Shown here in pieces: positions 54,240 to 55,452 of a stretch of 64,000 nt of DNA. The DNA comes from Planctomycetaceae bacterium. Its GTDB lineage: Bacteria; Planctomycetota; UBA1135; GCA-002686595. Every line of letters begins with the position of its first letter. Position 1 is the stretch's first letter. Both the position numbers and the translations under genes were made by a program. The stretch lies in the NCBI GenBank assembly GCA_011525785.1, contig WYBT01000032.1, forward strand, positions 62,001-126,000, written 5' to 3'. The notes under the pieces are model-generated. The model saw only the letters and a program-made list of their open reading frames with translations. It was not told the DNA's origin and did no database searches.

Positions 54240-54420
54240 CGAGGGGACGGCGGGGCGCGCGCTCGAACGGCGCACGGCGCTGGGGTTGCGGGCCGCGCAT
54301 GATCGACTATCGCAGCGCGAGCGCCAAGCGTCAGCAGTCCGTACGCAGCGCAGCACGCGCAAGATGCGCGTTCAGTTCGGCCGATTCGCGGCCGGAATCT
54401 TGCGGCTGCATTAAGGCGTT

Positions 54421-54496
54421 CAGCGCGGCCGAATGCCGCTATGGATGGGCGTGTCGGCCAAAGCGCCGACACGCCCCGCGGCATTCGGCCGCGCTG
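54421..54496. repeat. Long hairpin element A1
   Basis: Outer arms cagcgcggccgaatgccgc (54421-54439) and its exact complement (54478-54496) give 19 perfect base pairs. After a small asymmetric bulge, GGGCGTGTCGGC and GCCGACACGCCC form 12 more pairs around a CAAAGC loop. A near-identical copy (A2) lies 148 bp to the right. Confidence 0.9.
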
Positions 54497-54512
54497 AAGT
54501 GTTGGTTGGGTC

Positions 54513-54564
54513 GCTGCTCCTACTGGCGCCTTCGCGAAGACGCGAAGACGCCAGAAGTAGCAGC
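54513..54564. repeat. Hairpin element B between the two A elements
   Basis: Arms at 54513-54528 and 54549-54564 pair at 14 of 16 positions. An inner CTTCGCG/CGCGAAG stem (54530-54536 with 54541-54547) closes on an AAGA loop. It differs in sequence from A1 and A2. Confidence 0.85.
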
Positions 54565-54568
54565 TCCG

Positions 54569-54640
54569 GCGCGGCCGAAGGCCGCTATGGATGGGCGTGT
54601 CGGCCAGAGCGCCGACACGCCCCGCGGCATTCGGCTGCAC
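54569..54640. repeat. Long hairpin element A2
   Basis: The inner part, TATGGATGGGCGTGTCGGC and its pairing partner, is the same as in A1 apart from one loop base. The outer arms (54569-54585 and 54624-54640) have three mismatches, and comparison with A1 suggests decay from a common unit. Confidence 0.9.
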
Positions 54641-54711
54641 TGAGATCTCGGTGCGGTCGGCGCGAGATCCTGAGACGTTTGCGAAGCGCGGAGGCGCCAG
54701 GACGTCGCAGC

Positions 54712-55452
54712 TCAGCGGTTCTCGCGCGCCGCCGCCGCGTCGCGCTCGAGTCGTTCGTACTCGTCGCGCTCGATCGCTCGGGCGCGCAGCTCGCCGGCCT
54801 GCCAGCGGAACTCGCTCAGCGCTTCGCCCTCGAGCTGGTATTCGCCGGCGCAGGCCCCGGAGGCATCGTTCAAGCGCAGCAGTTGAAGCGTGGGAGTCAG
54901 GGAGTTGGCGCGCACCTCGAGCCGCTCGACGCGGCGGCCGAGTGGATCGAAGCACTCGAGCGAGCGGGGCAGATCGCCGACGCGCGCCGCTTCGACGAGA
55001 TGCAGCGCAAACCACACGGGCGCCGGCGCCGACAGCCGCTCGCGCACGACGTCGCGGCGGCCCCACTCCACCAGTTCGAGCACGCCGTCTTCCGCGCGCG
55101 CTCGCAGTGTGCGCCCTTGTCCGGCGCGCCACTCGCGCCACACCAGCTCCGCGGCGCACGCGTCGACGGTCTCGACCTGCTGCACGCGCAGGTCTCGCTC
55201 GAACAGCCGCGCTTCGAATTCGACCTGCGAACGCTCGCCGCCGCGCGCGCGCCAGCGGGCGAGCCCGACGGGCACGGGCACGCTCGCTCGCTGCGCGCTC
55301 GAGGCCGGTGAGTCGAGCAACAGCACGAAATGCTCTTCGCGCTGCACCCCGGCCGGCAGCGGCTCGCACCGCGGGGCTCGTGGACGCACAGCGCCCCACG
55401 CCAGACCGGCGACCAACAAGCCGTGCACCAGGAGTTCGAGACGACGCCGCAC
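54712..55452 (-). CDS. Exported protein of unknown function
   Basis: 246 residues from GTG 55452, the first start in the frame that precedes the hydrophobic segment (LELLVHGLLVAGLAWGAV). The rest is a mixed alpha/beta or beta-sandwich region (FVLLLDSPASSAQRASVPVP, VEFEARLFERDLRVQQVETV, LECFDPLGRRVERLEVRAN, LQLLRLNDASGACAGEYQLEG). The end is a charged helix (ERDEYERLERDAAAARENR). I recognise no family. It follows the DASS transporter gene on the same strand by 59 bp. Confidence 0.65.
   Translation of the reverse strand: MRRRLELLVHGLLVAGLAWGAVRPRAPRCEPLPAGVQREEHFVLLLDSPASSAQRASVPVPVGLARWRARGGERSQVEFEARLFERDLRVQQVETVDACAAELVWREWRAGQGRTLRARAEDGVLELVEWGRRDVVRERLSAPAPVWFALHLVEAARVGDLPRSLECFDPLGRRVERLEVRANSLTPTLQLLRLNDASGACAGEYQLEGEALSEFRWQAGELRARAIERDEYERLERDAAAARENR

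What the first reader, a model, noticed from the sequence alone, without database searches (positions are those of the whole stretch)
54421..54640. Alternating long-hairpin array (A-B-A') before the efflux operon
Three large hairpins, two of them copies of the same ~74-bp unit with up to 31 paired bases, sit in the untranslated region before the TolC gene. A2 has drifted in the outer arms while the inner stem and the TATGGAT bulge are kept, so the inner part may be selected. The layout recalls REP/BIME elements or a non-autonomous palindromic mobile element, and could also act as attenuator or mRNA stabiliser for the efflux operon.
Basis: partly seen in the sequence, partly recalled or inferred. 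Interest (0 to 1): 0.66.

Follow-up and report, generated by a model that had tools for sequence, protein, structure and literature searches.

The report
Stop-codon-seated palindromic mobile element family
The hairpins are two tandem copies of a roughly 149-base jumping DNA element that occurs almost 90 times in this Planctomycetota genome, mostly placed right at the stop codon of a gene; it is a new REP-like repeat family rather than a switch for the efflux genes.

Summary
The hairpins are real, but the finding cuts the unit in the wrong place. The region holds two head-to-tail copies of a ~149-bp element: CTGA foot, hairpin B (~25-bp stem), linker (consensus CGACNNNACCAACA), hairpin A (80 nt), ending CTGAG. 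The finding's A-B-A' is A2-B1-A1; it missed a decayed B2 at 54660-54711. About 88 places in this genome carry the element. A same-genus relative has 2-3 copies and lacks it here: the intergenic space is 298 nt (2 x 149) shorter. Four other orthologous sites are empty in the relative, with CTGAG or TTGAG where the element's left foot sits. Most copies start exactly at an in-frame TGA stop (42/57; other CTGAGC sites 30/205). Two more genera carry the same two ends: one has a different, longer interior; the other, in another family, has CTGA followed by T with the stem compensated. Both hairpins covary.

Best reading: a non-autonomous, REP/MITE-like mobile palindrome that inserts 3' of CTGA(G), so at stop codons. 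Single-strand HuH transposition is the likeliest mechanism (inferred); no mobilising enzyme was found. Efflux-specific regulation is not supported. It is not a canonical GTAG/CGTC REP. The CTGA foot fits the published CnGA foot of class-3 TnpA-Y1 repeats, but no class-3 gene was identified.

The parts
54712..54715 (-). CTGA foot of copy 2; TGA 54714-54712 is the stop codon of the upstream gene
   Evidence: Sequence; the upstream open frame ends here; same arrangement in 42 of 57 copies
54660..54711 (-). Hairpin B2 of copy 2, decayed
   Evidence: Homologous position to B; folds only partly
54644..54659 (-). Linker of copy 2 (CGACCGCACCGAGATC)
   Evidence: Matches the family linker
54565..54643 (-). 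Hairpin A2 of copy 2, right end (CCGGAG) shared with the foot of copy 1
54513..54564 (-). Hairpin B1 of copy 1, about 24 bp stem
54498..54512 (-). Linker of copy 1 (GACCCAACCAACACT)
   Evidence: Pattern match C26:116487-116517
54419..54498 (-). Hairpin A1 of copy 1, ending CGCTGAA (family: CGCTGAG)
54419..54711 (-). Whole tandem dimer of the element
   Evidence: Two units of about 149; the intergenic space is 298 nt longer than in G001

Best explanation
A tandem dimer of a non-autonomous mobile palindromic element of about 149-151 bp: CTGA | hairpin B - linker - hairpin A ...CTGAG. The family spread by inserting 3' of a CTGA(G) target. In a compact, GC-rich genome the harmless sites with that target are mostly TGA stop codons, so copies sit exactly on gene 3' ends. 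The right end carries the same CTGAG, so a new copy can insert into, or recombine with, the end of an old one, giving head-to-tail arrays that share a CTGAG junction, as here. Shown: copy number, constant ends, empty sites, target motif, arrays, covarying stems. Inferred: that movement uses single-stranded DNA and an HuH (Y1) nuclease reading the terminal hairpins and the CTGA foot, as in IS200/IS605 and REP systems. Any effect on efflux expression would be incidental. The confidence given is for the mobile-element reading; I put the HuH step alone at about 0.5.
For: About 88 places in the genome. The same-genus genome has 2-3 copies and lacks the dimer here; the intergenic length difference is 298 nt = 2 x 149. 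Empty orthologous sites at L062, L075, L009 and L037 with CTGAG or TTGAG at the insertion point. Left end on an in-frame stop in 42/57 copies against 30/205 other CTGAGC sites, 14/16 in G034, 10/17 in G142. Same left and right ends around a different interior in G034; in G142 the CTGA foot stays while the base after it changes. Head-to-tail arrays with shared CTGAG. Covariation in both hairpins above all shuffles and slid controls.
Against: No transposase with these ends was found and no Y1-like gene tracks the element. Nearest copies are mostly only 80-92% identical, so no recent jump was seen. B begins directly at the foot, unlike the spaced hairpins of IS200/IS605 ends. A good share of copies are cut off at the right end, which a precise two-ended mechanism does not itself explain.
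Confidence: 0.8

Rival explanations
1. A host 3'-end element: the hairpins are kept because they end or protect transcripts of the gene upstream (and of the convergent gene), and spread is secondary.
For: Position exactly behind stop codons; at least 19 of 43 copies have a convergent gene on the far side, 11 within 30 nt; hairpins covary; one terminator-like hit with a T-rich tail on the strand that reads A then the linker.
Against: The relative does without it at the same gene ends; no T-run behind B on the gene's own strand; many copies are decayed or truncated; absent from most relatives.
Confidence: 0.25
2. A repeat family of class-3 TnpA-Y1 proteins (HuH proteins known mainly from Planctomycetes and Acidobacteria). 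This is a narrower version of the best explanation, not an exclusive rival.
For: PMC6006769 reports CnGA feet and up to about 600 copies for class 3; here the foot is CTGA in all lineages, also where the next base changes.
Against: No gene identified as class 3 lies beside the copies or is shared by the carrier genomes. I had no class-3 profile, and the assembly is about 91% complete. The paper calls class-3 structures weak; B is strong.
Confidence: 0.3
3. A canonical GTAG or CGTC REP / BIME (REPIN) family moved by a RAYT.
For: High copy number, palindromic, intergenic, near gene 3' ends, in clusters; RAYT-like genes exist in the genome.
Against: No GTAG or CGTC tag at the hairpin foot; hairpins much larger than 20-40 bp; the two RAYT-like genes inspected in G000 are below the family cut-off and have no element beside them.
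Confidence: 0.1
4. A local attenuator or mRNA stabiliser of the efflux operon.
For: The hairpins lie upstream of tolC and would be transcribed if there is read-through from the upstream gene.
Against: Same gene order without the element in G001; about 88 copies at other loci; no leader peptide or Rfam match.
Confidence: 0.03

Closest known systems
GTAG/CGTC-tagged REPs, BIMEs and REPINs (PMC3733652, PMC3116915)
   Same: High-copy intergenic palindromes near gene 3' ends, clusters, termini that can supply a stop codon (TAG for GTAG REPs)
   Different: CTGA foot instead of GTAG/CGTC; 149-bp unit with two unlike hairpins head to tail; no linked RAYT
Class-3 TnpA-Y1 associated structures (PMC6006769)
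   Same: 5' CnGA foot, high copy number, occurrence in Planctomycetes
   Different: Strong rather than weak hairpins; no class-3 gene found beside any copy inspected
IS200/IS605-derived non-autonomous elements (IS608/ISDra2 logic; details partly from own knowledge)
   Same: End hairpins, short target kept at the left flank and repeated at the right end, replaceable interior
   Different: B starts at the foot with no spacer; no IS200/IS605 parent with these ends found
Ordinary MITEs with terminal inverted repeats
   Same: Small, non-autonomous, palindromic, many copies
   Different: The two ends of the whole unit differ (B at the left, A at the right); the flanking repeat CTGAG is the target motif itself

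Membership tests
Canonical REP/REPIN | GTAG (GT[AG]G) or CGTC tag at the foot of the hairpin | tested here: not met
   Foot is CTGA in nearly all copies
Canonical REP/REPIN | Full RAYT gene flanked by copies of the repeat | tested here: not met
   Two of three RAYT-like genes of G000 inspected; no element beside them; genome about 91% complete
Canonical REP/REPIN | Many dispersed intergenic copies near gene 3' ends | tested here: met
Class-3 TnpA-Y1 repeats | 5' CnGA foot | tested here: met
   CTGA in G000, G001, G034 and in 17 of 19 G142 copies
Class-3 TnpA-Y1 repeats | Adjacent class-3 gene | tested here: inconclusive
   Y1 genes found by Pfam or RAYT profile are not linked; no class-3 profile was available
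IS200/IS605-type non-autonomous element | Insertion 3' of a fixed short target with the same motif at the right end | tested here: met
   Empty sites and right ends
IS200/IS605-type non-autonomous element | Autonomous copy with TnpA and the same ends | tested here: not met
   None seen next to the Y1 genes inspected
IS200/IS605-type non-autonomous element | Single-strand excision and integration | not testable with these tools
   Needs biochemistry
Integron attC sites | Cassette array at one locus with an integrase | tested here: not met
   Copies are dispersed over most contigs as singles or gene-free repeats; an integrase was not searched for

The most novel reading that the evidence does not exclude
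A distinct class of single-strand-DNA mobile palindromes whose target is the tetranucleotide CTGA, so that stop codons serve as landing sites: the element spreads with little harm, installs a hairpin immediately behind the reading frame and may take over 3'-end formation of its host genes, moved by an uncharacterised HuH nuclease.
Probability: 0.35. Interest if true: 0.65.

Novelty: new variant of a known kind. Interest (0 to 1): 0.45.

Why it matters
It gives a comparative case, with many copies, empty sites and constant ends around replaceable interiors, for how REP-like palindromes move outside Proteobacteria. It suggests a way to colonise a gene-dense genome with little harm, by landing on stop codons. 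If the CTGA foot is read by a class-3 HuH protein, an undescribed nuclease-substrate pair becomes directly testable. For annotation, it warns that hairpins before an operon can be a mobile element behind the gene upstream.

Tried and rejected
Rfam: only microRNA models far below their cut-offs, chance hairpin matches. Viral contigs, phages, plasmids: no match. Mobilising gene: Pfam Y1_Tnp, the NCBIfam RAYT profile, and inspection of the fetched flanks of Y1-like genes in carrier genomes: nothing linked. The lead that G034's GGKRRGAGRKP-type Y1 proteins are the mobiliser was dropped because G000 and G142 lack close relatives of them. Selection on the TATGGAT bulge was dropped because the bulge varies between copies. 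A cross-copy pairing test (5' arm of a copy with the 3' arm of its nearest copy) gave no fewer pairs than within copies (3.1 against 3.2 unpaired), so the covariation reflects sublineages of the element, not copy-by-copy repair. A first scan of G034 and of G142 with a regular expression failed or was offset and was redone.

Full report
Observation. The three hairpins are present as described. The region folds 12.2 and 10.6 SD better than shuffled sequence on the minus and plus strand. The repeated unit is larger than the 74-bp 'A'. On the minus strand it reads: CTGA foot, hairpin B, a 15-16 nt linker (consensus CGACNNNACCAACANC), hairpin A, ending CGCTGAG. The window holds two units head to tail. 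Copy 2 (54565-54711) starts right after the stop codon of the upstream gene (TGA 54714-54712) with a decayed B2. Copy 1 (54419-54564) has an intact B1 and A1.

Copies. The window lies in contig C26 (62001-126000) of a 6.8-Mb assembly. Searching that genome with A gave about 48 places. The linker plus A-foot pattern gave 57 places against 0 for the reversed control. The full-element model R1 and the B model R2 raised the non-redundant count to 88 places. Several contigs end inside or beside the element, so this is probably a lower bound. Arrays of two or three copies at ~149-nt spacing occur at C18, C4, C19 (twice), C54 and C57. Full-length copies are 59-92% identical (median 74%), nearest neighbours mostly 80-92%.

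Organism. Among 60 relatives searched with the full-element model, only G001 (same genus, 2-3 copies) matches strongly and G034 weakly; a few others give marginal hits. The linker pattern is found only in the own genome and G001. One G001 contig matches JAEUHY010000060.1, titled Planctomycetota bacterium, by length (254,561 bases) and by the position of the match. The window's organism is therefore a Planctomycetota member.

Empty sites. In G001 the gene order upstream gene - tolC is kept, but the space between stop and start is 174 nt instead of 472 nt. The difference, 298 nt, equals two units of 149. Fetching 1.05 Mb of G001 gave further orthologous sites. L062 (own: two copies) reads CGCTGAG|GCC in G001, L075 CGCTGAG|CGA, L009 CGCTGAG|CCG and L037 GCTTGAG|TCC, all without the element. 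In L075 the own right flank resumes directly after the element's end (own CAGAG|CGACGAG, G001 CTGAG|CGAGCGC). This fits insertion 3' of CTGAG by an element that carries the same motif at its right end. L013 is occupied in both species, so some copies are older than the split. At L025 and L063 the stop codon itself differs between the species, so in some cases the element may have supplied the stop.

Stop codons. With exact TGAGC at the left end, 42 of 57 copies use that TGA as the in-frame stop of a coding-like frame. Other CTGAGC sites in the same stretches do so in 30 of 205 cases. The criterion (an open frame of at least 50 codons with high GC3) is crude, and selection against insertion inside genes contributes to the contrast. 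G034 gives 14 of 16 and G142 10 of 17. At least 19 of 43 G000 copies have a convergent gene on the far side, 11 of them within 30 nt.

Ends against interior. G034, another genus of the family, has about 30 copies of a longer relative: the same CTGAGC-B left end, a different middle of about 100 nt, then CCAACAAGANCTCAGCGCGG...CCGCGCTGAG. G142, in another family of the order, has at least 19 copies. There the foot is CTGA followed by T, and the first stem pair changes with it (GC...GC becomes TC...GA). The A module is recognisably the same and ends CCGCGCTGAG. Conserved termini around changeable interiors are the mark of an element moved by its ends.

Structure. In B, 87.5% of cells pair, 17 pairs show double changes, no shuffle reaches the covariation score, and slid structures fall to 38-53% paired. 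For the whole element the picture is the same; the inner stem of A changes C-G to U-A and A-U to G-C together. Five of 41 B stems have no unpaired position and others up to seven: a mixture of intact and decaying copies. Covariation shows that the hairpins matter but not whether for movement or for RNA function.

Mechanism. Inferred: single-stranded DNA transposition by an HuH (Y1) nuclease, because the element consists of end hairpins, has an unpaired tetranucleotide foot equal to the target, and shows identity of target and right end. Class-3 TnpA-Y1 proteins, found mainly in Planctomycetes and Acidobacteria, are associated with high-copy hairpins with a CnGA foot (PMC6006769), which CTGA fits. 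I did not find the enzyme. The Y1/RAYT-like genes inspected in G000 and G142 are not flanked by the element (the third G000 gene counted was not inspected). G034's own set has no close relative in the other carriers. The mechanism step therefore stays open.

Function near tolC. Nothing ties the element to efflux. The strand that reads A and then the linker has a T-rich tail scored as terminator-like at 54484-54498, so an incidental terminator role is possible but unproven.

Comparison. In the broad sense it is REP-like. GTAG REPs are also known to sit near 3' ends and to supply stop codons (PMC3733652). It fails the tag and RAYT-linkage criteria of canonical REPs. I found no paper in the open library describing stop-codon-seated CTGA palindromes, which is weak evidence since many papers are not held. 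I rate it a new variant of a known kind.

Noticed in passing
G000 copies such as L035, L036, L037, L063, L064, L070, L231, L237: Roughly a third of the copies inspected keep B and the linker exactly but break off at varying points inside A: constant left end, truncated right end. Unexplained; could be deletion of an unstable long palindrome or incomplete transfer.
   Followed up: partly
G000 contigs C53, C22, C58, C45, C5, C59, C56: Contigs end in or just beside element copies, so the repeat seems to break the assembly and the copy number is underestimated.
   Followed up: no
L244 (G034:C7 about 40170) and L247 (G034:C79 about 79700): A second palindromic repeat (GTGATTCACGCA...GGGGCCTTTATCCC...) is nested in the foot of hairpin B in two copies: one mobile palindrome inside another.
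   Followed up: no
L031/L084 (G000:C11:214000-217930): A RAYT-like gene of 389 aa (NCBIfam REP_Tyr_transpos 4e-13, below cut-off) lies next to frames that look like an IS91-type transposase (from own knowledge, not searched).
   Followed up: partly
L271 (G142:C7:6603): A RAYT-like gene of 358 aa is bounded by inverted GGTGCCAGGCAC-type repeats, resembling the 'TIRYT' arrangement mentioned in PMC6006769.
   Followed up: no
G034:C21, C25, C7, C43, C52, C83: Six related HuH (Y1-like) genes of a GGKRRGAGRKP type in one genome, with more distant relatives in G026; their substrate is unknown.
   Followed up: partly
L025 and its G001 counterpart (C59:265708-265807): The own protein ends six codons earlier, exactly at the element's TGA, so the insertion may have shortened the reading frame.
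   Followed up: no
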